Shown: positions 2,813 to 36,335 of the stretch, piece by piece
Numbering within the stretch: position 1 is the first letter of the stretch
Layout: each line of letters starts with the position of its first letter
NCBI GenBank assembly: GCA_029934085.1
Contig: JAOZMY010000003.1
Coordinates: 1-36,335 of the forward strand
Reading direction: 5' to 3'
Origin: a bacterium
GTDB taxonomy: Bacteria; Desulfobacterota; S145-22
DNA: 36,335 nucleotides
Notes under the pieces: model-generated
Told to the model about the DNA's origin: nothing
The model's input: the letters and a program-made list of their open reading frames with translations, nothing else
Database searches by the model: none
Made by a program: the position numbers and the translations under genes

Positions 2813-4300
2813 ATGTCTTCAGGGTCATTTTGGGTGCTCGTTCAGACGCCCGTCAAGCGTGAAGCCCAGGAGAATGCCTTCCACTTCGACAAGCGAGACA
2901 TGGCGTTAGGCCTATTTGGGGATGGGACGTTTGTCGATGGCGACGAGACGTTTCTGAGCCTTTTGGGGAAACCTTCCTATCCCGTGAAACTTGAAGAGGT
3001 CTTTAACCCCGAACATACGAAGATGCTGTTGCAGGTTTTTTCTGAACCTGCGTCGCCGGCCCTGTATTTCGAAGTGGAAAGGCGGGGTGAGAGGTACACG
3101 GTGTCTACCTTTCGGTCTACAACCGACAAGGATCGATATTTTTGGTTGGTGGTGGACAAAACGAGCCATCCGACGGGAAAACCAATCGTGGGATTCGAAC
3201 AACGCTATCGTCGCCTGTTCGAAAACCTCAAAGATGCCGTGTTTGCCAGTACCGTCGAGGGGAGATTTATCGATATCAATCCTGCCGGCGTGGAGATGCT
3301 GGGCTATAGCTCGAAGGAAGAGGTGTTGAAATTAAACATCCTGACGGATTTATACTACTATCCCGAGGATCGTTTGAAATACCAGGAAATCATCGCGAGG
3401 CAGGGGTATGTGAGGGATTATGAGGTTGTGTTCAAGAAGAAAGACAAGACCCCTCTCTTTGTCTCCATGTCGAATATCGCCGTTTATGATGAGGAGCGAA
3501 AGGTCCTGGGATATGAGGGAATCTTCCGAGACCTAACCCGTCAGAAGCAGATCGAGGAAGAGCTCAAGCGCAAGAATGCACAGTTGGAATCGTATGTGTA
3601 TACCGTCTCCCACGACTTAAAGTCCCCCGTCATTGCCATACAGGGCTTTTCCCGTCTTTTGATGAGACGCTATCGAGACGTGCTGGACAAGAAAGGCGTG
3701 GAACTTTTAGAACGGATTATGGGAATTTCTAAGCGAATAGAGAAGATGATTATGGATCTTCTTGCCTATTCAAAGGCAGAGAAAGATGCCGTGGGAGAGT
3801 TTGAATTTATCGATACGTATCAGGTCGTCCAGTCCATCATTGAGGAGTTGAAGTTGAAATGGGAGGGACATCCTGTTACATTTAATGTGAGTGAGGGGCT
3901 GCCGGAGATTCTTTTTCACCCCGGGAGCTTCAGGCAGATCATGTCGAACCTTATCGACAATGCCATCAAATATAGTCGGCAGTCGCCCTCATCGGTTGTG
4001 ACCATCGACTGTTGGATTGAGGACGGTTCTGTGGTATTTTCGGTAAAGGACAATGGCATCGGCATTGACCCAACCCTGCAAGATAAGATATTTGATGTCT
4101 TTGAAAGGGGAGAAGCTCCGGAGGAGATTGAAGGAACAGGAATCGGATTGAGCATCATCAAGCGGATTATTGAAACCCATCATGGGAAGATCTGGCTTGA
4201 TTCGGAGAAAGGTAAAGGGACAACCTTCTACGTGCGGTTGCCGGTTCGCACGTTGAAGAGGAAAGAGACCGCTTCCCACCGAGATGGTGCGCTTATGTGA
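2813..4300 (+). CDS. cytoplasmic PAS-domain sensor histidine kinase
   Basis: The 495-residue protein has no membrane segment and should sense an intracellular signal. Residues 1-120 resemble a weak, divergent sensory domain. A clear PAS domain covers about 132-245 (RLFENLKDAVFAS to YEGIFRDLTRQKQ), followed by a short coiled coil. The dimerisation domain carries the phospho-accepting His267 in YTVSHDLKSP. The ATPase domain shows the N box NLIDNAIKYS (379-388), G1 DNGIGID (413-419) and G2 GTGIGLSI (441-448). All catalytic boxes are intact, so it is expected to be active. AAGGG lies 8 bases before the ATG. It is followed after 21 bases by the hybrid kinase, with which it is probably co-transcribed; no separate response regulator with an output domain is adjacent. 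Confidence 0.92.
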   Translation: MSSGSFWVLVQTPVKREAQENAFHFDKRDMALGLFGDGTFVDGDETFLSLLGKPSYPVKLEEVFNPEHTKMLLQVFSEPASPALYFEVERRGERYTVSTFRSTTDKDRYFWLVVDKTSHPTGKPIVGFEQRYRRLFENLKDAVFASTVEGRFIDINPAGVEMLGYSSKEEVLKLNILTDLYYYPEDRLKYQEIIARQGYVRDYEVVFKKKDKTPLFVSMSNIAVYDEERKVLGYEGIFRDLTRQKQIEEELKRKNAQLESYVYTVSHDLKSPVIAIQGFSRLLMRRYRDVLDKKGVELLERIMGISKRIEKMIMDLLAYSKAEKDAVGEFEFIDTYQVVQSIIEELKLKWEGHPVTFNVSEGLPEILFHPGSFRQIMSNLIDNAIKYSRQSPSSVVTIDCWIEDGSVVFSVKDNGIGIDPTLQDKIFDVFERGEAPEEIEGTGIGLSIIKRIIETHHGKIWLDSEKGKGTTFYVRLPVRTLKRKETASHRDGALM

Positions 4301-4321
4301 GGTTGTCCGGTTGAGAGGGTT

Positions 4322-6283
4322 GTGGAAAGTCGCATAAAAATTTTTAGGAACTACCTGCGGGCCCTGATCCAGGCGGTTTTTCCGTCTGAACCTTGGTTTA
4401 TTCTCCTCTTTTCTCAAATAGGCGTCAGAGAGACCCATAGGATTTTCCTGTCGTTTCCTTTTGAAGAGAACTTTTTGACCGACAAGATGACAACGTATCT
4501 CCTCCCGAAACTCCCTAAGGATATGTCAGCCCCCGTGTATCGTCGGGATCTCGTTCCTGATTTTTCTGTTTCCTCGGTCAACGTGAAATACGATATCACG
4601 GCGCCCATCTCCTACAATGGTCGCCAGATAGGCCTTTTCTGGGTGGGAACCTATGACTGGAACGGTTTCATGACGCTTCAGAGGAAGACGGTTATCCACC
4701 TTGCCGCACTTATCGGGTTTATGCTGGGGGTCTTTGCGCAGTCGGAGATGCAGGAACAGGATCTCATCGCATCAGAGATACGTTTCCGGGATTTGGTTCG
4801 CCATCTGGATGATGCCGTCTTTGTGGCGGAGAACGATCGCCTTGTCTATGTCAATCCCTCCTTGAGCGCGCTTTTTGCCTCCCCGGAGTCGGAAATCCTC
4901 GGGAAGTCCCTTCAGGAATGGATATATCCTGATGATGTGGAGGCTTTTAAACTCAGGTGGAAGCGTCTGCTGTATGGCGAGCCCTTTCCCCAGGACTATG
5001 AGATCAGGTTCAGGAACAAAGAGGGGGAAACTCGACAATGTCTCCTGACCCTTCGTAGGATGCCCTCTACGAAAGAGCCCGTTATCTTAGGGACCCTAAA
5101 GGACGTTACGGGGCTTAAGAATATCTGGAACGGTCTGTACGAGGCGAAGAAGAAGGAGGCCATTGGGACCCTGGCGGGAGGTATGGCCCACGATTTTAAC
5201 AATATCTTGGGAAGCATCCTTGGGTACGCCTCCCTGATCAAGCGTGAGGTCTCCACGGGCGAGAAACTCTATCACTATGCGGATGGTATCGAACAGTCTT
5301 CCAACCGGGCCGCCAAGCTGATTCAGCAGCTTTTGGGATTTTCCTTCAAAGGACGATACAAGGAAATCCCCTTTGTGTTACAGGGAACCCTCCAGGATCT
5401 AAAGGAAATCCTCGAAAACATGGTGGATCCGTCCATAGAGATTGTCCTTCAAATGGCGCGGGAGCCCCTGATGATCCTTGGGGATATGGATCAGGTTCAC
5501 CAATCGCTGTTGAATGTTTGTTTGAACGCCAAGGATGCCATGCCGGAAGGGGGTGTCCTCAAACTCGGCCTCTCAAAACGGTGGATCCCTGCGGCAAAGA
5601 CCTCTTTGAACCAGAAGCTGTTCCCTGGTGTCTATGCCCAGGTAACCATTGAAGACACGGGATGCGGCATGCATAAGGGGGTCTTGGAAAAGATATTCGA
5701 TCCCTTTTTTACGACCAAAGAGGTGGGCAACGGTGTCGGTCTGGGCCTGTCCATGACATATGGGATTGTCAAGAGTCACGGTGGATTCATTGAGGTGGAG
5801 AGCACTCCCGGGAAGGGGAGCCTTTTCAAGATTTGTTTCCCCCTTTACGAGGGGGCGTCCGAGTTACCTGAGGATCAGGACTTTGATCCCGCCTTTTTAG
5901 GGAAGGGGGAATGGATTCTTGTGGTGGATGACGATGAAGAGTTCCGAAATAGGTTGAGAGAGATCCTGGCGAGCCATGGGTATCATGTGCGTCTCGCAGA
6001 AAATGGGGAAGAGGCCGTCAGGCTCTATAGAGAGGCCTTTCCCTTTACCACCTTTCATCTCGTTCTCCTCGATATGTCCATGCCTGTCATGGGTGGGGAG
6101 GAGACCTTTTGGGAGCTCAAGCGAATTGACCCCGATGTGACGGTGGTCTTGATGACCGGGTTTGCCTTGGACGGGGATGTGCGAGACCTCCTTCAGTCAG
6201 GGGTCCCCGGTTATATCCAAAAACCCTTCAAGACAAGCAGCCTTCTGAGGGCGGTTCGGACGACGCTGGATCTAAACGGATAA
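4322..6283 (+). CDS. hybrid sensor histidine kinase with PAS and C-terminal receiver domain
   Basis: The 653-residue protein begins with a region of about 145 residues whose end ([16 protein letters not shown]) resembles a GAF-type domain. A PAS domain follows at about 152-265. The HisKA domain has His290 in GGMAHDFNN, the NtrB-like form. The ATPase domain has [10 protein letters not shown] (402-411), EDTGCGM (444-450), the F box DPFFTTK (460-466) and GVGLGLS (471-477). A receiver domain from about 531 carries the acidic pair Asp536/Asp537, phospho-acceptor Asp584 in LLDMSMP, Thr612 and Lys634. It could pass phosphate internally and on to an unlinked partner. The start is GTG at 4322, the only candidate that keeps the N-terminal domain; a GAGAGGG sits unusually close to it. 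Its last 12 bases overlap the end of korC on the other strand. Confidence 0.92.
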
Positions 6284-6829
6284 ACGTTTTACCCTTTCCG
6301 CCGCCTTTTTGCCTTCCTCTATCCCGATACTCAGCGCTTTTTTGTTCAGATCCGCGCTCCAGGGGGGAACCCGTTTCAAAACGGCCTCTGTGAGGGAGGA
6401 GACCTTTACGATCTTGGAGATCTCTGCGATGGCCCCGATGGCGATGATATTAGCCACAAAGGCCTTTCCCAGTTCTTCCTTAGCCAGTCGTGTGAAAGGG
6501 ATCTGATAGGCCTGGTTCGTGGGAACCTGGTGGACCAGAGAGCTATCCACGATGAGGAGCCCATCTTTTTTCAGGTCGAGATAGTATTCATCACACGATT
6601 TCTGGTTCATGCAGAGGAGAAGGTCGAGACGATTGGCCTTAGGGTAGTAGATGGTCTCGTCGCTGATGATGACCTCGGATTTGCTCGCGCCGCCTCGGGC
6701 CTCGGGACCGTAACTCTGTGTCTGGACAACATTTTTCCCGTCGTAAATCCCGGCGGCCTCCGCGAGGATGATTCCAATGAGGATCAGTCCCTGGCCACCT
6801 GAACCGGATAATCTTACTTCGTAACGCAT
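6272..6829 (-). CDS. korC: 2-oxoacid:ferredoxin oxidoreductase, gamma subunit
   Basis: The 185-residue subunit belongs to the pyruvate/ketoisovalerate oxidoreductase gamma family, which contributes to the coenzyme A-dependent, ferredoxin-reducing oxidative decarboxylation of 2-oxoacids. The N-terminus MRYEVRLSGSGGQGLILIG and the stretch QSYGPEARGGASKSEVIIS are the family hallmarks. It is the last gene of korD-korA-korB-korC, 12 bases after korB. Its end overlaps the hybrid kinase tail to tail by 12 bases, and there is no room for a conventional terminator between them. 2-oxoglutarate is the likely substrate from subunit order and resemblance, but a branched-chain or other 2-oxoacid cannot be excluded. 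Confidence 0.88.
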   Translation of the reverse strand: MRYEVRLSGSGGQGLILIGIILAEAAGIYDGKNVVQTQSYGPEARGGASKSEVIISDETIYYPKANRLDLLLCMNQKSCDEYYLDLKKDGLLIVDSSLVHQVPTNQAYQIPFTRLAKEELGKAFVANIIAIGAIAEISKIVKVSSLTEAVLKRVPPWSADLNKKALSIGIEEGKKAAERVKRLSV

Positions 6830-6841
6830 CTGTTTTCTCCT

Positions 6842-7675
6842 TTACGCCAGTCCCTTGGCTCTTTCTCTTACCTTTTCGTATTCTTCCTCGTAAACGGGCA
6901 GGTCTTTGTCGACGAGGATCCCCGTGATGATTTTATCCTTCAACTCTTCGGGAGACATCTTGGCGGCCTTTTCAACTGGGATGGAGTTGTCCCGCTGCCA
7001 TTTCAACATGTCGACGGCCGATCCCAACTTGTTCTGGCGTCCATACTGGACATGGCAGTGCGTGACAACCTCCACGACGCTGAAGCCCTTTTTGAGGATC
7101 GCCTTTTCGATGAGATTGTCCAGCAGCTTGGCGTTGTATACCGTTTGCCTGCCGACAAAGACGGCCCCCGCAGTTACGGCCAACTCGGAAATCTTGAAAG
7201 CCTGCTCGATACTGTTGTAAACGGCCGTGGAGGCCCGCATTCCATAGGGTGTGGTAGGGGAGTATTGTCCACCCGTCATCCCGTAGATACTGTTATTGAG
7301 GATGATGGCTGTGATATCGATGTTCCGGCGGGCGGCATGGATAAAATGATTCCCCCCGATCGCCATGCTGTCACCGTCTCCCATGATGGTGATCACGTTG
7401 AGCGATGGTTTTGCCAGCTTGACGCCCGTAGCGTAGGTCAAGGCGCGGCCATGAGTGGTATGAAGGGTGTTGAAATCCACGTAAACGGGGAGCCGGCCGG
7501 AACACCCGATCCCGGAAACGAGAACGATATCATCTTTTGAAAGTCCCGTCTTGTCGATGGCGCGGATGAGCGATCCCAGCAGGATCCCGTTGCCGCAGCC
7601 TGGACACCAGACGTGCGGGAATTTCTTGTCGTGTCGAAGATAGTTATGAATGAGTCTCGTATACTCAGGCATCAA
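6842..7675 (-). CDS. korB: 2-oxoacid:ferredoxin oxidoreductase, beta subunit (thiamine diphosphate binding)
   Basis: The 277-residue subunit binds thiamine diphosphate and magnesium. WCPGCGNG near residue 23 supplies the conserved Cys pair of the family. GDGDSMAIGGNHF (about 98-110) and NNSIYGMTGGQ (about 127-137) form the TPP/Mg motif GDG...NN. SPTTPYGMRAST follows, as in KorB proteins. The length fits the separate KorB subunit rather than fused pyruvate:ferredoxin oxidoreductases. Its ATG overlaps the korA stop by 4 bases (7672-7675), which points to coupled translation. It works in the cytoplasm with alpha, gamma and delta subunits. Confidence 0.93.
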   Translation of the reverse strand: MMPEYTRLIHNYLRHDKKFPHVWCPGCGNGILLGSLIRAIDKTGLSKDDIVLVSGIGCSGRLPVYVDFNTLHTTHGRALTYATGVKLAKPSLNVITIMGDGDSMAIGGNHFIHAARRNIDITAIILNNSIYGMTGGQYSPTTPYGMRASTAVYNSIEQAFKISELAVTAGAVFVGRQTVYNAKLLDNLIEKAILKKGFSVVEVVTHCHVQYGRQNKLGSAVDMLKWQRDNSIPVEKAAKMSPEELKDKIITGILVDKDLPVYEEEYEKVRERAKGLA

Positions 7676-8811
7676 TAGACCTCCTTGAGTTTTCGTAAGA
7701 TGTCATCCGGTGTAATGACCTGTCCATCCACGCGGTTGAGGGTGATAATCCGGGCATAGCCTTGGTCCACGCGTTTTACCTCACGGGAGTATTGCCCCAT
7801 ATTCATTTCAGGAATGATAACGGCGCGGACGTTTTTGAGGATCTCTTCAACCGCCCCCCGCATGAAGGGCCAGATGGTGATGGGGCGAAAAACCCCAACC
7901 TTTTGACCTTTCTCGCGGGCGAGGATCGCGGCCTGCTTCGCGGATCGTGCCACGGAGCCATAAGAAATAATGGCGACCTCGGCATCGTCCATCAGGAAAT
8001 ATTCCCCCTCCTGAATATAGGGGAGTCCTTTGTCGATTTTCCTGTGAAGTCTGTGTATGAAGGCGTCCACTTCGTCCGGCCTCGATGTGGGGAAGCCCCG
8101 AACGTCATGAACCAAACCGGTAACATGGTAGCGATATCCGTCACCAAAAGCGGACATGGGGGGAACCCCGATGCTGTTATCTTCATAGGGGATATACCAG
8201 TCCGGAGGGACGTTGGGCCGGACGCGCTCGATGATTTCAAGGGACTCCGCGGGAGGTAGTGTGATCTTTTCGCGCATGTGGGCGATGACTTCGTCCGTGG
8301 TCAAAATTACGGGGACACGGTAGCGCTCCGAGAGGTTGAAGGCCTTGATGGTGGCGTAAAAGCACTCCTCGACGGAATGGGGGCAGAGAACGATAATGGG
8401 GTGGTCTCCGTGGGTGCCCCAGCGGGACTGCATGATATCTCCCTGGGCCGGATTCGTTGGGAGACCGGTGCTGGGACCGCCCCGCATGATGTTGACCACC
8501 ACACAGGGAACCTCTGTGATACAGGCGAATCCAATGTTTTCCTGCATGAGGGAAAATCCAGGCCCGCTTGTCGCCGTCATCGATTTGACGCCTGTGAGGG
8601 AGGCCCCGATAATAGCGCCCATGCTTCCGATTTCATCTTCCATCTGGACGAAGGTTCCGTCCACCATGGGCATTTTCACGGACATCCCTTCCGCGATTTC
8701 CGTGGCGGGCGTGATGGGGTAGCCTGCGAAAAAACGGCATCCGGCGGCGATTGCCCCTTCGACGATGGCTTCGTTTCCTTGAAGAAGAAGTGGTTGGTTT
8801 GTATTACCCAT
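7672..8811 (-). CDS. korA: 2-oxoacid:ferredoxin oxidoreductase, alpha subunit
   Basis: The 379-residue alpha subunit holds the pyrimidine-binding domain of the 2-oxoacid oxidoreductase. LLQGNEAIVEGAIAAGCRFF followed by GYPITPATEI is the family N-terminus. QMEDEIGSMGAIIGASLTG and TSGPGFSLM supply the cofactor-facing parts, and the second domain (IIPEMNMGQYSREV) is typical of KorA. An upstream ATG at 8835 is in frame, but the ATG at 8811 has AAGGAGG 8 bases ahead, so it is preferred. This start overlaps the korD stop by 8 bases. The protein is a separate alpha subunit without the fused gamma domain found in some lineages; here gamma is encoded by korC. Confidence 0.93.
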   Translation of the reverse strand: MGNTNQPLLLQGNEAIVEGAIAAGCRFFAGYPITPATEIAEGMSVKMPMVDGTFVQMEDEIGSMGAIIGASLTGVKSMTATSGPGFSLMQENIGFACITEVPCVVVNIMRGGPSTGLPTNPAQGDIMQSRWGTHGDHPIIVLCPHSVEECFYATIKAFNLSERYRVPVILTTDEVIAHMREKITLPPAESLEIIERVRPNVPPDWYIPYEDNSIGVPPMSAFGDGYRYHVTGLVHDVRGFPTSRPDEVDAFIHRLHRKIDKGLPYIQEGEYFLMDDAEVAIISYGSVARSAKQAAILAREKGQKVGVFRPITIWPFMRGAVEEILKNVRAVIIPEMNMGQYSREVKRVDQGYARIITLNRVDGQVITPDDILRKLKEVY

Positions 8812-31288: not shown

Positions 31289-31317
31289 TTGACAGCACGA
31301 TAATATGATGATAGGTA
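31289..31317 (+). promoter_or_regulatory. candidate promoter of the TRAP-reductive dehalogenase operon
   Basis: TTGACA (31289-31294) is perfect; TAGGTA (31312-31317) after 17 bases is a weak -10, with TATGAT at 31316-31321 as an alternative at a too-long spacing. The palindrome at 31327-31341 lies just downstream, where a repressor would block it. Confidence 0.4.
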
Positions 31318-31326
31318 TGATGTATT

Positions 31327-31341
31327 AAACATAATATGTTT
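31327..31341. promoter_or_regulatory. palindrome ahead of dctP, candidate operator
   Basis: AAACAT (31327-31332), AAT, ATGTTT (31336-31341) is a perfect inverted repeat just after the candidate promoter. The downstream GntR-family gene is an obvious candidate to bind it, but the same sequence is not repeated before that gene. Confidence 0.45.
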
Positions 31342-31411: not shown

Positions 31412-32434
31412 ATGAAGAAGCATTTTTACGCAGTATTGGTAGGAATTCTGGTCGCGGCTTTCTTTTTGGGTGCGACGAACCAGACATGCCGGGCGGAGAA
31501 GGTCATTGAGTTGAAGCTGGCCCATTTCATGTCCACGATGCATGTCCAGCATCGGAAGGCCTTCGTTCCCTTTGCGGAGAAGGTGGCGAAGTTGACGAAT
31601 GGCCGTGTCAAGATCAAGATCTATCCGGGAGGGACCTTGGGGAATCCCAAGACGATGGTGGACGCCATTCGAACGGGTATTACCGATATCGGTTTTGTCT
31701 TACCTGAATATGTTCCCGGTCGATTCAAGCGTAGTAGCGTCTTTGAGCTCCCCTTCATCTTTCACAGTGCCACCCACGTGACCAAGGTAACGTATGCTAT
31801 TTACAAGGATTACCTCGCCCCCGATTATAAAGACTTCAAGGTCCTCTGGTTCCTCTCGGCACCGTTGACCCAGTTGATGACGGTGAAGAAGCCGGTGAAA
31901 TCCCTCGCCGACATGAAGGGGCTTCGGATCCGTTCCGCCAGCGCTACGGAAACGGAGGGGTTGAAGCTCCTGGGAGCAAATCCCATCGGAATGCCTATTT
32001 CGGAGGTGTCTATTTCCCTTCAGAAGGGTGTGATCGAGGGGGTCTTCACCCCGTTTGCTGCCCTCAAGGCCCACAAGCTCATCGATATCGTGAAGTATAT
32101 GACGGAGTTTAATTACAACGGTGCCTTGATGTGCGTCTTGATGAACAAGAAGAAGTGGAACTCCCTTCCCGATTTTGCAAAGAAGGCCATCGACCAGGTG
32201 GCGAACAAGGACTTTGGAATCATGGCGGCCAAGGCCTTCGATGAGGAAGACGCGGAGAACGTGGCGGCGGGTAAGGCCAAAGGGATTAAGGTCTTTAAGC
32301 TTTCGGAGACGGACAAAGAGGTTATGCGCAAGAAGCTGAGCCATATCTGGGAGAAGTGGGTCAAGAAGAATGCTGGCCGATTCCCCGCCCAGAAGATTCT
32401 GGATGCCACCCTCGCCGCGGCCAAGGCAAATTAG
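31412..32434 (+). CDS. dctP: TRAP transporter solute-binding subunit (DctP family)
   Basis: The 340-residue periplasmic protein binds an organic acid and hands it to the DctQM membrane part. A signal peptide (FYAVLVGILVAAFFLG, cleavage after CRA) precedes the mature start EKVIELKLAHF. YPGGTLGNPKTMVDAIRTG and the GLRIRS motif (170-175), whose last Arg (174) normally pairs with the substrate carboxylate, are in the usual places. IGMPISEVSISLQKGVIEG is another family mark. AGGAGGGAGG stands before the ATG. It heads an operon with dctQ, dctM and a reductive dehalogenase gene. The substrate should be a carboxylate; its identity is not visible. Confidence 0.93.
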   Translation: MKKHFYAVLVGILVAAFFLGATNQTCRAEKVIELKLAHFMSTMHVQHRKAFVPFAEKVAKLTNGRVKIKIYPGGTLGNPKTMVDAIRTGITDIGFVLPEYVPGRFKRSSVFELPFIFHSATHVTKVTYAIYKDYLAPDYKDFKVLWFLSAPLTQLMTVKKPVKSLADMKGLRIRSASATETEGLKLLGANPIGMPISEVSISLQKGVIEGVFTPFAALKAHKLIDIVKYMTEFNYNGALMCVLMNKKKWNSLPDFAKKAIDQVANKDFGIMAAKAFDEEDAENVAAGKAKGIKVFKLSETDKEVMRKKLSHIWEKWVKKNAGRFPAQKILDATLAAAKAN

Positions 32435-32449
32435 AGAACTATTTTGATC

Positions 32450-32482
32450 GGGGCTGATGTCTCCGCGGGAGGCACCAGCCCT
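32450..32482 (+). other. strong stem-loop between dctP and dctQ
   Basis: GGGCTG (32451-32456) pairs with CAGCCC (32476-32481), and GTCTCC (32459-32464) with GGAGGC (32468-32473) closing a 3-base loop. No T-run follows, so it is more likely an RNA-stability or attenuation element that raises dctP over dctQM than a full terminator. Confidence 0.6.
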
Positions 32483-32511
32483 CGGTTTGAATCTTTCCGG
32501 GAGACGAGAGT

Positions 32512-33018
32512 ATGAAAAAACTTGTCTCGAAGTTCGAGAAGGGCCTCTATTTTTTCACCCGGCAGGTGGATCGTATCTCTTGGGGGGTCTTATTCTTCCT
32601 GATGCTTATGACCGTGTGCCAGGTCTTTCTGAGAAAACTCACGAATCATGCCATTCTCGGAACGGTGGAGTTGACCGAGCTGGCGATGGCCTTTATCGTT
32701 TTCTGCTCGCTGGCCGAGTGCCAGGTCCATGAGGGACATATCAAGGTGGACCTCGTCCTGAGCCGATTCAGCCCCCGTGTTCAGTCCTTTTTCGATATCC
32801 TGACCCAGGGAGCCTCTTTCGTGATCTTCAGCCTCATGACCATCGCCTTGTTTCGTCAGGCCGAGGAACTGAAGAGCGCGGGAGAGGTAACGGTCGATTT
32901 GGCCATTCCCATGTATCCTTTTGTCTATGTGGCGGCCTTTGGATGCGTGCTCCTGGCCCTTGTTCTCTTGGCCAAGGCCCTTCGGGCCCTAATCAACTTC
33001 CTCGAGGTGCAACCGTGA
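32512..33018 (+). CDS. dctQ: TRAP transporter small permease subunit (DctQ family)
   Basis: The 168-residue membrane protein has the four helices of DctQ (ISWGVLFFLMLMTVCQVFL, a second at VELTELAMAFIVFCSLAEC, a third at FFDILTQGASFVIFSLMTI and a last at FVYVAAFGCVLLALVLLAK). The stretch ELTELAMAFIVFCSLAECQV followed by EGHIKVDL matches family members. It pairs with DctM in the membrane and contacts DctP. GGGAG precedes the ATG. Its stop overlaps the GTG start of dctM (GTGA), so the two are made together. Confidence 0.9.
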   Translation: MKKLVSKFEKGLYFFTRQVDRISWGVLFFLMLMTVCQVFLRKLTNHAILGTVELTELAMAFIVFCSLAECQVHEGHIKVDLVLSRFSPRVQSFFDILTQGASFVIFSLMTIALFRQAEELKSAGEVTVDLAIPMYPFVYVAAFGCVLLALVLLAKALRALINFLEVQP

Positions 33019-34319
33019 GTCCCGAGGTCATCGGTCTCTTAGGCCTGCTGGTTCTCTTTATCCTCCTGGCCATGCGGATGCAGATAGGGTTTGCCATGGC
33101 CCTGGTAGGATTTGTTGGATTCATCATTCTCAACAATTTCCAGGCGGCCATGGGGGTCCTGGGGCTTGAACCCTTCAAGATCACGGCGGATTATACTTTG
33201 AGTGTGATCCCCCTCTTTCTGCTCATGGGGGAATTTGCCAACGAGTCCCGCATGGGGGCCGAACTCTACGACATGCTGTATAAGTGGATCGGGTTTCTCC
33301 CCGGCGGGTTGGCCATGGCCACGGTGGGGGCGTGCGCTTTCTTTGCGGCGATTACGGGATCTTCACTCGCCACAGCGGCCATGTTCGGGATGATCGCCTA
33401 TCCGGAGATGAGAAATTTGAACTACGCGGAGACCCTCGCGACGGGGTGCATCGCCGCGGGAGGCACCTTGGGGATCTTGATTCCGCCAAGCTCCGTCCTG
33501 ATTATCTACGGTATCCTGACGGAACAGAGTATCGCGCGCCTCTTTATTGCCGGGATGCTGCCGGGTATCCTCCTCGCACTCATCTTCATGGGAACCATCT
33601 TCGTGATTACCAAACGCAGACCTGAACTGGGGGCCCCTGGTCCCAGGTTTACCATCAAAGAGAAGGTAACCTCCCTGAAGGCCACGTGGGGAATCATTCT
33701 CCTATTCATCCTGGTCATCGGCGGCCTCTATACCGGGTGGTTTACCCCTACGGAGGCCGCGGGTGTGGGGGCCTTTGGCGCCTTTGTCCTGGCCCTGCTG
33801 AAACGAAGTATGGGTTGGAAGACCCTGGTGGCTTCTCTGAAGGGAACCGTCCGCTCGACGGCCTTTATCTTTGGGATTCTTATCGGCGCCATGGTCTTTC
33901 AGTATTTCATGACCCTGAGTCAAATCCCGGAGAAACTGGCCTCATGGATCGTCATGATAGGGGTGGGCCGTTACGTGGTGGTTTCCGCCATCATCCTGGC
34001 CTTCATGGTAATGGGCTGTTTCATGGAGGGGCTGTCCATCATGTTTCTGGCGGTTCCCATCGTTTATCCCATCGTAATCCGGTTGGGTTTTGATCCCATC
34101 TGGTTTGGGGTCATCATTACCCTTACCATGGAAATGAGCCTGATCACCCCGCCCGTGGGGGTCAATGTTTTTGTCCTGCACGGAGTGGTGAAAGATGTTC
34201 CCATGTACACGATCTTTCGCGGCATCCTTCCCTTTTGGATCGCCATGATCATTTGCATCATTATTCTTATTGTCTTCCCGCAAATCGCGCTGTTCCTTCC
34301 AAACACGATGATGGGTTAG
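33015..34319 (+). CDS. dctM: TRAP transporter large permease subunit (DctM family)
   Basis: The 434-residue subunit forms the sodium-coupled transport channel and has about 12 hydrophobic segments. Family marks include FLLMGEFANESRMGAELYD, GACAFFAAITGSSLATAAMF, GTLGILIPPSSVLIIYGILT and FTPTEAAGVGAFGAF. The start is GTG at 33015, which overlaps the dctQ stop; a longer frame from 32943 lies inside dctQ and is rejected. The rdhA-like gene begins 9 bases after its stop, and TAGGAG of the stop region serves as its ribosome site, so transporter and dehalogenase homologue are co-expressed. Confidence 0.93.
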   Translation: MSPEVIGLLGLLVLFILLAMRMQIGFAMALVGFVGFIILNNFQAAMGVLGLEPFKITADYTLSVIPLFLLMGEFANESRMGAELYDMLYKWIGFLPGGLAMATVGACAFFAAITGSSLATAAMFGMIAYPEMRNLNYAETLATGCIAAGGTLGILIPPSSVLIIYGILTEQSIARLFIAGMLPGILLALIFMGTIFVITKRRPELGAPGPRFTIKEKVTSLKATWGIILLFILVIGGLYTGWFTPTEAAGVGAFGAFVLALLKRSMGWKTLVASLKGTVRSTAFIFGILIGAMVFQYFMTLSQIPEKLASWIVMIGVGRYVVVSAIILAFMVMGCFMEGLSIMFLAVPIVYPIVIRLGFDPIWFGVIITLTMEMSLITPPVGVNVFVLHGVVKDVPMYTIFRGILPFWIAMIICIIILIVFPQIALFLPNTMMG

Positions 34320-34328
34320 GAGTTTGAT

Positions 34329-35774
34329 ATGACGAGGATACTTCTTTTTCTGGACGCCCTGTTCTTCATCGGCGCCGTCTATTTCACCTTTGAATCGGTC
34401 AGGGAAAGGGAATACCAGGCCCCGAAGATAGGGGTGGGATTAAGTCTTTTCGCCCTCCTCTTGGCGGGGTTTATCCTGTGGGTGCCTCCTTTGAGACCAT
34501 TTATAGCAGTCTTTTTCGGTGTTGGGGTTGCGGCCTTGATCGTCTTTGCGGTGCCGACGCCGCCGGATCCCAGGATCTTGCAGGGCGCCCAAGGACATAT
34601 CGTTGAGGAGGCTATTCGCCACGATGAAAGGGATGTTTCCTTCGCCCGCGTGAGAGGCGTTCCCCCAGGAACCCCTTACTACAAGCGGTATTACAGCATG
34701 CATCCCGAAAGGGAGGAACCGGATGCTATCCGGCGGGAGAAGGGCCTTTTGGGGGAGCCCGGACGGGTAGATAAACGCTACCGTCCCAATGTGGCCATGA
34801 TGGAGGCCTCCTTTGATATGCCCAACTTTCTTGGGCTCTATGCGGAGGCAGCGCCGTCGCCTGAAAACCCACCTTATGAAGCCGATCCTAAAAAGGCCAC
34901 GGAGATCGTGAAAAATCTTGCTCTGACCCTTGGAGCGGACATGGTGGGGATTTGTAAGGTAAATCCCAACTGGGTCTATTCCCACCGCGGTGAAATCTTC
35001 TACGATCGGTGGGAGGATTGGGGGAAAGAGATCGATCCGGAGGAACTTCCCCCCTATGCCGTGGTCATGTTGACGGAGATGCGGGAGGATCACGTCTGTG
35101 CGGCACCTCACACCCCCACGGTGGCGGAGAGCGCCCGGAACTATGGCCGCGGGTCCTATCTGAGCACGGTGCTTGCCTGGTGGTTTGCCCATATGGGCTA
35201 TCGTGGCGTTGCCCAGAACTCCCGGCATTACGATATCGCCCTTCCGCCTCTGGCGGTGGACGCCGGCCTGGGGGAAGTTGGGCGGCTTGGGTATCTCATC
35301 GCCCCCAAGTTCGGGGCGCGGGTGCGAATCTTTGCCGTGTTGACCGACATGCCGCTCGTGCCGGACAAACCCATCTCCATCGGGGTAGACGAATTCTGTA
35401 AATGGTGTAAGAAGTGCGCGGAATCGTGTCCATCCAGATCTATCCTGATGGAGGACAAGGTGGTCTATAATGGGGCGTTGAAGTGGAAGCTGGACGCGGA
35501 CAGCTGTTTCGATTACTGGACTAAGGTGGGAACCGACTGCTCCATCTGTATGGCGGTCTGTCCCTACAGCCGTCCCAACACTCCTTTGCACCGCATCGTG
35601 CGGTGGTACGTGGCGCGATCCCGCCTGGCGCAGAAATACTTTCCGCTGGTAGATAATTTTCTTTATGGGAGAAAGTGGCGTCCAAAGCCGGTGCCTTCCT
35701 GGCTCGACTATCCCAAAGGGAAAGACGTGGTCAAGGAGGAGTATGGATTGGGCAGGGTAAACGATTTTGGATAA
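34329..35774 (+). CDS. membrane-anchored reductive dehalogenase homologue (RdhA-like, 2x[4Fe-4S])
   Basis: RdhA enzymes use cobalamin and two [4Fe-4S] clusters to remove halogens reductively. The 481-residue protein has three N-terminal membrane helices (about 4-22, 36-52, 57-77) in place of the usual Tat signal. The core contains GRGSYLSTVLAWWFAHMGYR, then DAGLGEVGRLGYLIAPKFGA and RIFAVLTDMPL, as in RdhA. Cluster 1 is C357-x2-C360-x2-C363-x3-C367-P; cluster 2 uses C393 plus C404-x2-C407-x3-C411-P. Queuosine reductase QueG shares part of this fold but is shorter and lacks the anchor. Placement directly behind a TRAP importer is the oddity. Halogen removal is inferred; other reductions are possible. 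No maturation chaperone or separate RdhB is present. Confidence 0.82.
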   Translation: MTRILLFLDALFFIGAVYFTFESVREREYQAPKIGVGLSLFALLLAGFILWVPPLRPFIAVFFGVGVAALIVFAVPTPPDPRILQGAQGHIVEEAIRHDERDVSFARVRGVPPGTPYYKRYYSMHPEREEPDAIRREKGLLGEPGRVDKRYRPNVAMMEASFDMPNFLGLYAEAAPSPENPPYEADPKKATEIVKNLALTLGADMVGICKVNPNWVYSHRGEIFYDRWEDWGKEIDPEELPPYAVVMLTEMREDHVCAAPHTPTVAESARNYGRGSYLSTVLAWWFAHMGYRGVAQNSRHYDIALPPLAVDAGLGEVGRLGYLIAPKFGARVRIFAVLTDMPLVPDKPISIGVDEFCKWCKKCAESCPSRSILMEDKVVYNGALKWKLDADSCFDYWTKVGTDCSICMAVCPYSRPNTPLHRIVRWYVARSRLAQKYFPLVDNFLYGRKWRPKPVPSWLDYPKGKDVVKEEYGLGRVNDFG

Positions 35775-35795
35775 TGTGCGATTATGCGGTATAAT
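35767..35795 (+). promoter_or_regulatory. promoter of the GntR-family regulator gene
   Basis: TTGGAT (35767-35772), a 17-base spacer and perfect TATAAT (35790-35795) overlap the end of the rdhA-like gene. The regulator could thus be made apart from the operon. An inverted repeat CGGT-N6-ACCG (35787-35800) covers the -10 box and could be an autoregulatory site. Confidence 0.5.
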
Positions 35796-35824
35796 GACCG
35801 TTAGAAAGAAGGGAGAAAAAAACG

Positions 35825-36335
35825 ATGTCTTTCCAGCCATTGGAGAAAAAGAGGTATTCTGAGCAGGTCGCACACGAGATAGAATCAAAAATCCTTAATA
35901 ATGAGCTGAGGTTAGGGGAACGTCTCCTTTCAGAGGTTGACCTGGCAAAGGAATTTCGTGTCAGCCGGACCGTCATTCGAGAGGCCCTGCGCCTGCTGGA
36001 AGGGCGAGGCTTCGTCAAGATAAAACGGGGGCCCAAGGGGGGCATCTTCGCAAACGACGGTTTCCACAAACCCATGAGTGAGGCGCTTGGGCGCCTGGTT
36101 GATTCTGGGAAGGTTTCTGCAGAGGATATTTTTGAGATTCGCCTCCTTATCGAGCCCTATGTGGCGGCGGAGGCGGCCAGACGTGCCACAAAAGAGGACA
36201 TTGAAGAACTCCAAGCCCTCATCAATCTTTGCAAAGATCATATGGAGGACAGCGAGTATCTCCAGAGGGTTCGAGGGAAATTCCATGTCCAACTCGCCCA
36301 GGCCACGGGAAACCCCGTGTTGCTCATCATGATGA
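35825..36335 (+). CDS. FadR-type GntR-family transcriptional regulator, cut by window edge
   Basis: About 170 codons are visible before the window ends, found by direct translation. The N-terminal winged helix has RYSEQVAHEIESKILNNELR, GERLLSEVDLAKEFRVSRTV and VIREALRLLEGRGFVKIKRG. The start of an FCD effector domain follows (IFEIRLLIEPYVAAEAARRA, then FHVQLAQATGNPV with a probable metal-ligand His). FCD domains bind small organic acids, in keeping with regulation of the adjacent TRAP-dehalogenase genes by their substrate. GGGAG is 9 bases before the ATG. The C-terminal quarter is missing from the window. Confidence 0.92.
   Translation, partial: MSFQPLEKKRYSEQVAHEIESKILNNELRLGERLLSEVDLAKEFRVSRTVIREALRLLEGRGFVKIKRGPKGGIFANDGFHKPMSEALGRLVDSGKVSAEDIFEIRLLIEPYVAAEAARRATKEDIEELQALINLCKDHMEDSEYLQRVRGKFHVQLAQATGNPVLLIMM

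What the first reader, a model, noticed from the sequence alone, without database searches (positions are those of the whole stretch)
31412..36335. TRAP importer coupled to a reductive dehalogenase homologue and a FadR-type regulator
dctP-dctQ-dctM is followed after 9 bases by an RdhA-like gene and then by a regulator with an acid-binding FCD domain. Tight spacing suggests one functional unit: take up an organic acid and reduce it, under substrate control. Reductive dehalogenases are usually found with rdhB, rdhC/K regulators or NADPH-linked modules, so a carboxylate importer as partner would define an unusual uptake-and-reduction system, perhaps for a halogenated acid. Substrate and reaction are inference; the gene order and motifs are seen.
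Basis: partly seen in the sequence, partly recalled or inferred. Interest (0 to 1): 0.75.

Follow-up and report, generated by a model that had tools for sequence, protein, structure and literature searches.

The report
Aromatic-acid importer paired with dehalogenase-like enzyme
In several families of anaerobic bacteria, a pump that probably takes up aromatic acids sits in one gene cluster with a vitamin-B12-type dehalogenase homologue and a switch protein, which points to a substrate class for a group of membrane-bound dehalogenase-like enzymes whose job has been unknown since they were described.

Summary
dctP-dctQ-dctM, an rdhA homologue 9 bases further on, and a GntR/FCD regulator lie on one strand (31412-36335; the regulator is cut by a scaffold gap). 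The order is not an accident: it recurs in relatives, and rearranged versions (gntR-rdhA-dctPQM, rdhA-gntR-dctPQM) occur in other families. Of 16 informative loci with this DctP clade, 13 carry rdhA beside it. On an rdhA tree the TRAP linkage needs at least five changes on well-supported branches. The RdhA is a 'hybrid' type already in print (Atashgahi 2019): three N-terminal membrane helices, no Tat signal, no rdhB, function unknown. The catalytic domain is predicted to be cytoplasmic, and PceA's menaquinone-pocket residues are kept. The DctP belongs to the aromatic-acid (TarP) group of TRAP receptors. A palindrome (TAATAGGTCAGACCTATTA type) overlaps the promoter; a matrix trained on other genomes ranks it first, and it also ranks first in five loci not used to find it. 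A sister operon carries a close homologue of the bromo-hydroxybenzoate dehalogenase NpRdhA. Best reading: TRAP uptake of a (probably halogenated) aromatic acid and its quinol-linked reduction on the cytoplasmic face, under ligand-controlled repression. Substrate and reaction remain inferred. New variant of a known kind.

The parts
31289..31317 (+). Probable sigma-70-type promoter: TTGACA (31289-31294), 17 bases, TAGGTA (31312-31317)
   Evidence: Read from the sequence. TTGACA at a like position and spacing lies before the operons of G001, G003, G405 and G348:C35. The consensus scan does not list it, as the -10 is weak.
31309..31327 (+). Operator-like palindrome TGATAGGTATGATGTATTA overlapping the -10, 85 bases before dctP
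   Evidence: Top site of the region in a leave-one-out matrix scan (16.4; next best 6.6). Only 0-mismatch site in the own genome for a pattern partly modelled on it. A looser pattern alone is not significant in the window (0.28 expected); the weight lies in conservation.
31412..32434 (+). dctP: TRAP solute-binding protein, aromatic-acid (TarP-like) group
   Evidence: PF03480. AF2 model pLDDT 91.4. The first 27 Foldseek PDB rows are the TarP/aromatic-acid group and its closest kin, including 4n6d of unknown ligand. Profile search agrees.
32512..33018 (+). dctQ: TRAP small membrane subunit
   Evidence: PF04290, 1.4e-26
33015..34319 (+). dctM: TRAP large membrane subunit (GTG start)
   Evidence: PF06808, 6.1e-96; TIGR00786 339.8 bits, above its cut-off
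34329..35774 (+). rdhA-like gene: hybrid (membrane-anchored) reductive dehalogenase homologue, 481 aa
   Evidence: TIGR02486 above cut-off; AF2 pLDDT 90.9, pTM 0.89; Foldseek to PceA/NpRdhA; Y272 invariant and R333 nearly invariant in 33 homologues
34332..34550 (+). three N-terminal transmembrane helices of RdhA (residues 2-25, 31-51, 53-74) with an EXE motif (E26-R27-E28)
   Evidence: AF2 helices; hydropathy and positive-inside count over 30 homologues
35397..35432 (+). first FeS motif CxxCxxCxxxCP (C357-P368)
   Evidence: invariant in 33 homologues
35538..35564 (+). second FeS motif CxxCxxxCP (C404-P412); C393 lies upstream
   Evidence: invariant in 33 homologues
35825..36335 (+). gntR: FadR-subfamily (GntR + FCD) regulator, cut by the scaffold gap at the window end
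   Evidence: PF00392 and PF07729; continues in L036; orthologue complete in G002, 232 aa

Best explanation
A self-regulated uptake-and-reduction operon. DctPQM, a Na+- or H+-driven TRAP system whose receptor is of the aromatic-acid type, brings an aromatic carboxylic acid into the cell. The RdhA homologue, held in the membrane by three helices fused to its N-terminus and with its corrinoid/2x[4Fe-4S] domain on the cytoplasmic face, takes electrons from menaquinol and reductively removes a substituent, most likely a halogen ortho to a hydroxyl. The FCD-domain GntR protein represses the operon at a palindrome over the -10 box until the acid or its product binds. Shown by comparison or motif: operon order and its recurrence, receptor class, RDase fold and catalytic residues, helix topology, kept quinone-pocket residues, conserved operator-like site. 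Inferred: the exact acid, the halogen, quinol as donor, repression, energy yield.
For: Synteny: dctPQM-rdhA-gntR in G000, G002 and G418; in G001 and G003 as far as the contigs reach; dctPQM-rdhA in G348:C37; gntR-rdhA-dctPQM in G086, G405 and G407; rdhAsol-gntR-dctPQM in G348:C35; several rdhA with gntR and dctPQM in G449; rdhA genes beside dctP/dctPQM in G451 and G460. 13 of 16 informative DctP-clade loci are linked. Another TRAP branch is linked to TMH-RdhA in G423. RdhA tree: TRAP label needs 7 changes, at least 5 forced by supported branches. Receptor: best Foldseek rows are 5im2, 4n6d, four structures titled 'specific for aromatic acid ligands', and TarP with coumarate, ferulate, cinnamate or caffeate; sugar-acid and sialic-acid receptors come later. 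RdhA: nearest folds PceA/NpRdhA; Y272 = PceA Y246, R333 = PceA R305. Quinone pocket of DhPceA (K489, H495, R499, D515, Y520) aligns with R415, H421, R425, D442, Y446 (numbering offset 48 inferred from matching identities). Topology: 30 of 30 TMH homologues have three helices; K/R 268 on loop 1-2 plus C side against 40 on N-terminus plus loop 2-3. Operator. A sister operon under the same operator type holds an NpRdhA-like enzyme (2e-129) with Y426, K488 and R552 kept; NpRdhA has been solved with 3-bromo-4-hydroxybenzoic acid (6zy1). In the own genome an operator-like site also lies before an iodotyrosine-deiodinase-like flavoenzyme. The genome has three cobalamin riboswitch matches.
Against: No ligand, activity or transcript data. 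The window's RdhA has Trp397 where NpRdhA has substrate-binding Arg552, so it need not share NpRdhA's substrate. Most TMH-RdhA genes of the phylum have no TRAP beside them. Three DctP-clade loci lack rdhA (G292, G416, G452). No clear operator was found before G418, G348:C37, G451, G460 and G423. No rdhB, rdhC or corrinoid gene is in the operon. Corrinoid binding was not tested.
Confidence: 0.6

Rival explanations
1. Same import-and-reduction unit, but the bond broken is not carbon-halogen: the RdhA homologue reductively cleaves an aryl C-O (hydroxyl, methoxyl or sulfate ester) or C-S bond of a lignin-type aromatic acid.
For: TarP-type receptors are known for non-halogenated phenylpropenoid acids. 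The related QueG removes an epoxide oxygen with the same cofactor type (family knowledge; homology). Nothing in the window's operon is specific for halogen.
Against: RDase fold and residues match dehalogenases far better than QueG. The sister operon's RdhA is NpRdhA-like with all three key residues. An operator-like site lies before an iodotyrosine-deiodinase-like gene.
Confidence: 0.2
2. Neighbours without a shared pathway: the RdhA removes toxic organohalides or serves as a general electron sink, and the TRAP merely supplies a carbon source under the same regulator.
For: Most TMH-RdhA genes lie alone. Some loci of the DctP clade lack rdhA.
Against: Linkage recurs in several orders and with several RdhA and TRAP branches. 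A joint operator-like site and joint decay at G416:C49.
Confidence: 0.13
3. The catalytic domain faces the periplasm and acts as a respiratory RDase; the TRAP imports the dehalogenated product.
For: Some TMH-RdhAs were predicted exoplasmic by TMHMM (PMC6797604). Quinone-pocket residues are as in the exoplasmic PceA.
Against: No Tat signal to export a cofactor-loaded domain; positive-inside count gives N-out/C-in overall in the 30 TMH homologues; soluble, signal-less RdhAs take the same place in sister operons.
Confidence: 0.07

Closest known systems
Hybrid RdhA with N-terminal transmembrane helices (Atashgahi 2019, PMC6797604; Jochum et al. 2018, PMC6129605)
   Same: about 480 aa, three TMHs, EXE motif, no Tat signal, no rdhB, two FeS motifs; found in deltaproteobacteria
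   Different: Neither paper, as searched, mentions a TRAP or GntR link; function was left open. Here the gene is in a recurrent TRAP/GntR operon.
NpRdhA / BhbA catabolic reductive dehalogenases and the Comamonas pBHB cluster
   Same: A cytoplasmic RdhA beside a carboxylate-importer component (tripartite tricarboxylate receptor); the substrate is a halogenated aromatic acid
   Different: Aerobic; fused NAD(P)H reductase domain; TTT receptor instead of a whole TRAP system; no membrane anchor; Arg552 is Trp397 in the window protein
PceA2B2 menaquinol:organohalide oxidoreductase (PMC10624902, PDB 8q4h)
   Same: RdhA fold, catalytic Tyr/Arg, quinone-pocket residues, three-helix anchor with EXE
   Different: Tat-exported and exoplasmic, separate PceB; the paper says function and activity of fused RDases remain to be assessed
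TarPQM aromatic-acid TRAP transporter (PMC3610893)
   Same: receptor fold and group, conserved Arg for the carboxylate
   Different: TarPQM is described as an uptake system for lignin-derived aromatics; no RDase partner appeared in the passages read

Membership tests
Reductive dehalogenase catalytic subunit (TIGR02486) | profile score above the curated cut-off | tested here: met
   187.5 bits against 160.35; PF13486 20.9 bits, just below its 24.3 cut-off
Reductive dehalogenase catalytic subunit (TIGR02486) | two 4Fe-4S motifs, catalytic Tyr and basic partner | tested here: met
   C357-P368, C404-P412, Y272 invariant; R333 nearly invariant
Reductive dehalogenase catalytic subunit (TIGR02486) | binds corrinoid | tested here: inconclusive
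   fold matches corrinoid-bound PceA/NpRdhA; binding not measured; ring-contact residues not scored
Reductive dehalogenase catalytic subunit (TIGR02486) | removes halogen | not testable with these tools
   needs enzyme assay
Classical respiratory RdhA | Tat signal and partner rdhB | tested here: not met
   three TMHs instead of a Tat signal; no rdhB in the operon
Self-sufficient catabolic RdhA (NpRdhA/BhbA) | fused reductase (PDOR) domain; Y426/K488/R552 | tested here: not met
   481 aa without reductase domain; Y present, R333 at K488, W397 at R552
Hybrid TMH-RdhA | three N-terminal TMHs, EXE motif, no Tat, no rdhB, FeS motifs | tested here: met
TRAP transporter | DctP, DctQ, DctM together | tested here: met
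TarP-type aromatic-acid receptor | nearest to aromatic-acid receptors by sequence and fold; conserved Arg | tested here: met
   (R174 invariant)
TarP-type aromatic-acid receptor | binds aromatic acid | not testable with these tools
   needs ligand binding
FadR-subfamily GntR regulator | GntR wHTH plus FCD domain; GGTNNNACC-type palindrome near the promoter | tested here: met
   domains; palindrome (protein-DNA binding itself not tested)

The most novel reading that the evidence does not exclude
A third working mode of reductive dehalogenases, widespread in anaerobic sediment bacteria: a membrane-fused, cytoplasm-facing menaquinol:halo-aromatic-acid reductase fed by its own TRAP importer and controlled, with further dehalogenases in the genome (a second RdhA, an iodotyrosine-deiodinase-like enzyme), by one FCD-GntR regulator.
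Probability: 0.35. Interest if true: 0.8.

Novelty: new variant of a known kind. Interest (0 to 1): 0.62.

Why it matters
Membrane-fused RdhA homologues are found in many uncultured anaerobes, and two papers state that their function is unknown (PMC6797604, PMC10624902). A recurrent partnership with an aromatic-acid importer and a regulator narrows the substrate to a testable class, places the reaction on the cytoplasmic side, and gives easily expressed proteins (DctP, GntR) with which to find the compound. It bears on the halogen cycle of marine sediments and on how RDase genes are annotated.

Tried and rejected
Small haloacids (haloacetate type) as the main guess: dropped because the receptor groups with aromatic-acid receptors. 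Chance adjacency: rejected on recurrence. Epoxyqueuosine reductase (QueG) identity: rejected (TIGR00276 37.2 bits against a cut-off of 200; fold E 1e-6 against 1e-20). Perfect palindrome AAACATAATATGTTT at about 31328: not conserved even in G001, dropped. gntR's own promoter (TGGATA-16-TATAAT): not seen in the rdhA-gntR gaps of G002, G003 and G418 (by eye), so left open. Cobalamin riboswitch or other Rfam element in the window: none. RdhA on plasmids: only distant matches, none with a whole TRAP beside it in the four looked at. Literature searches for RDase with TRAP, and RDase with GntR, gave nothing on such a link; that library holds open-licence papers only.
Full report
What is there. The window is bases 1-36335 of a 55,582-base scaffold in a 2.4-Mb, 94%-complete genome. 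From 31412 to its end it carries dctP, dctQ, dctM, an rdhA homologue and a gntR gene, all on the + strand, with gaps of 77, -4, 9 and 50 bases. Domain searches confirm each. The gntR gene is cut by a run of N at 36335 and continues behind it. Upstream, on the other strand, lie a class-I methyltransferase with a PUA-like domain and a family-3 glycosyl hydrolase. Behind gntR come ORFs that I read as mutS2, dnaG and rpoD from their first residues. The operon therefore stands among housekeeping genes.

Is the order more than chance? Relatives were searched by protein and their DNA was read. The same order is complete in G002 (its dctP is cut by the contig start) and in G418 (another family), and reaches as far as the contigs allow in G001 and G003; G348:C37 has dctPQM-rdhA at 72% RdhA identity. 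Rearranged versions follow. G086, G405 and G407 have gntR-rdhA-dctPQM. G449 has a soluble rdhA, gntR, a TMH rdhA and dctPQM, with one more soluble rdhA upstream. G451 has soluble rdhA, TMH rdhA, dctP. G460 has rdhA on both sides of dctPQM. G348:C35 has soluble rdhA, gntR, dctPQM. G416:C49 holds a decayed remnant of the whole set. In G423 another TRAP branch (DctP 34% identical) sits directly before a TMH rdhA. Of 17 loci of the DctP clade found in two searches, 13 have rdhA alongside, three do not (G292:C46, G416:C71, G452:C776) and one ends at a contig edge. On a tree of 33 RdhAs the TRAP label needs 7 changes, at least 5 of them forced by well-supported branches. Repeated pairing points to a shared task. 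Most TMH-RdhA genes in the phylum nevertheless have no TRAP neighbour.

The enzyme. P0001 passes the reductive-dehalogenase model and only weakly meets epoxyqueuosine reductase. Its AlphaFold model (pLDDT 90.9) matches PceA and NpRdhA at about 1e-20 to 1e-21, and QueG at 1e-6. Both FeS motifs and Tyr272 are invariant, and Arg333 nearly so, in 33 homologues. By alignment Tyr272 = PceA Tyr246 and Arg333 = PceA Arg305 / NpRdhA Lys488. NpRdhA's Arg552 is Trp397 here, as in PceA. Three helices (residues 2-25, 31-51, 53-74) precede the catalytic part, with the EXE motif in the first loop; all 30 TMH homologues have three. Positive charges lie on the first loop and after helix 3 (268 K/R) rather than on the N-terminus and second loop (40), which puts the catalytic domain in the cytoplasm. 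The five residues named as the menaquinone pocket of D. hafniense PceA (K489, H495, R499, D515, Y520) align with R415, H421, R425, D442 and Y446 (the offset of 48 between chain and paper numbering is my inference from the matching residues). H421, D442 and Y446 are at least 90% conserved. A menaquinol donor is thus likely but not shown. Corrinoid-contact residues were not scored; the genome does have three cobalamin riboswitch matches.

The importer. The receptor's AlphaFold model finds, as its first 27 PDB rows, the aromatic-acid group and its nearest kin: 5im2, 4n6d, the four structures titled 'specific for aromatic acid ligands', TarP proteins with coumarate, ferulate, cinnamate, caffeate or 4-hydroxyphenylacetate, and Dde_0634. 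A profile search gives the same order, with isethionate and sialic-acid receptors far behind. The ligand of 4n6d, the closest by sequence, is not given in the tool output. This makes an aromatic carboxylate the best guess and a small haloacid a poor one.

The switch. A 19-base palindrome of the type TAATAGGTCAGACCTATTA lies before the operons. In the window it is 31309-31327, over the probable -10 box. Sites were first picked by eye before six operons, then tested by leaving each out: in five of six the left-out site is the best in its whole locus (G000, G003, G405, G348:C35, G086); the G418 site failed. The same holds for G001, which was not used. In five loci not used to build the matrix (G449, G452, G200, G323, G238) the best site of the whole locus again lies just before the operon. 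In the own genome the best site of its locus also precedes a second rdhA (contig C100) and an iodotyrosine-deiodinase-like gene next to another TRAP dctM (contig C4); these two regions were defined after the hits were seen. A looser pattern is not significant in the window alone, and several linked loci show no site. GntR binding is inferred.

Why halogen. The RdhA of the sister operon in G348:C35 matches NpRdhA at 2e-129 and keeps Tyr426, Lys488 and Arg552, the residues named for substrate binding and catalysis. NpRdhA was solved with 3-bromo-4-hydroxybenzoic acid (6zy1), and characterised catabolic RdhAs act on ortho-halogenated phenols. That enzyme shares gntR, operator type and TRAP clade with the window's operon. 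The step from there to the window's own RdhA, which lacks the Arg552 equivalent, is inference, and reductive C-O cleavage remains open.

Known or new. Hybrid TMH-RdhAs are known by sequence, and their function was left open. A carboxylate-importer component beside a catabolic RdhA exists in Comamonas pBHB. No paper found in this open-licence library describes the TRAP-RdhA-GntR association. I file it as a new variant of a known kind.

Noticed in passing
L196 (G000:C4) 3991-4650 and 4745-4763: An iodotyrosine-deiodinase-like flavoprotein (5ko7 1e-68, mammalian IYD about 1e-55) follows a TRAP dctM, with the operator-like palindrome between them: perhaps a second, flavin-type dehalogenase in the same regulon.
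   Followed up: partly
L044 (G000:C100) 2922-4112, site 4200: A second rdhA homologue of the same genome has an operator-like site 88 bases upstream.
   Followed up: partly
L043 (G000:C164) and L046 (G003:C78): A third rdhA homologue (no TMH) lies next to a small membrane protein gene, an order kept in both genomes; possibly an unusual anchor.
   Followed up: no
L187, L188 (G200, G323): Operon of NpRdhA-like rdhA, gntR and a dctP of another branch with the operator-like site 21 bases before rdhA; no dctQM was found close by.
   Followed up: partly
L115, L116, L118, L076: A pair that looks like a GlcD-type FAD oxidase and a GlcF-type Fe-S protein (judged from first residues only) lies beside TRAP-rdhA loci, or beside rdhA alone in G292.
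   Followed up: no
L145 (G416:C49) 6200-8324: Decayed remnant of dctP, rdhA (in-frame TGA) and gntR: the set seems to decay as a unit.
   Followed up: partly
window 36335 / L036 about 636-760: The window ends at a scaffold N gap; the sequence after the gap repeats the last bases before it, a scaffolding overlap inside gntR.
   Followed up: yes
G451 and G460: These genomes carry 12 and 18 rdhA-like matches, unusual numbers outside known organohalide-respiring genera.
   Followed up: no
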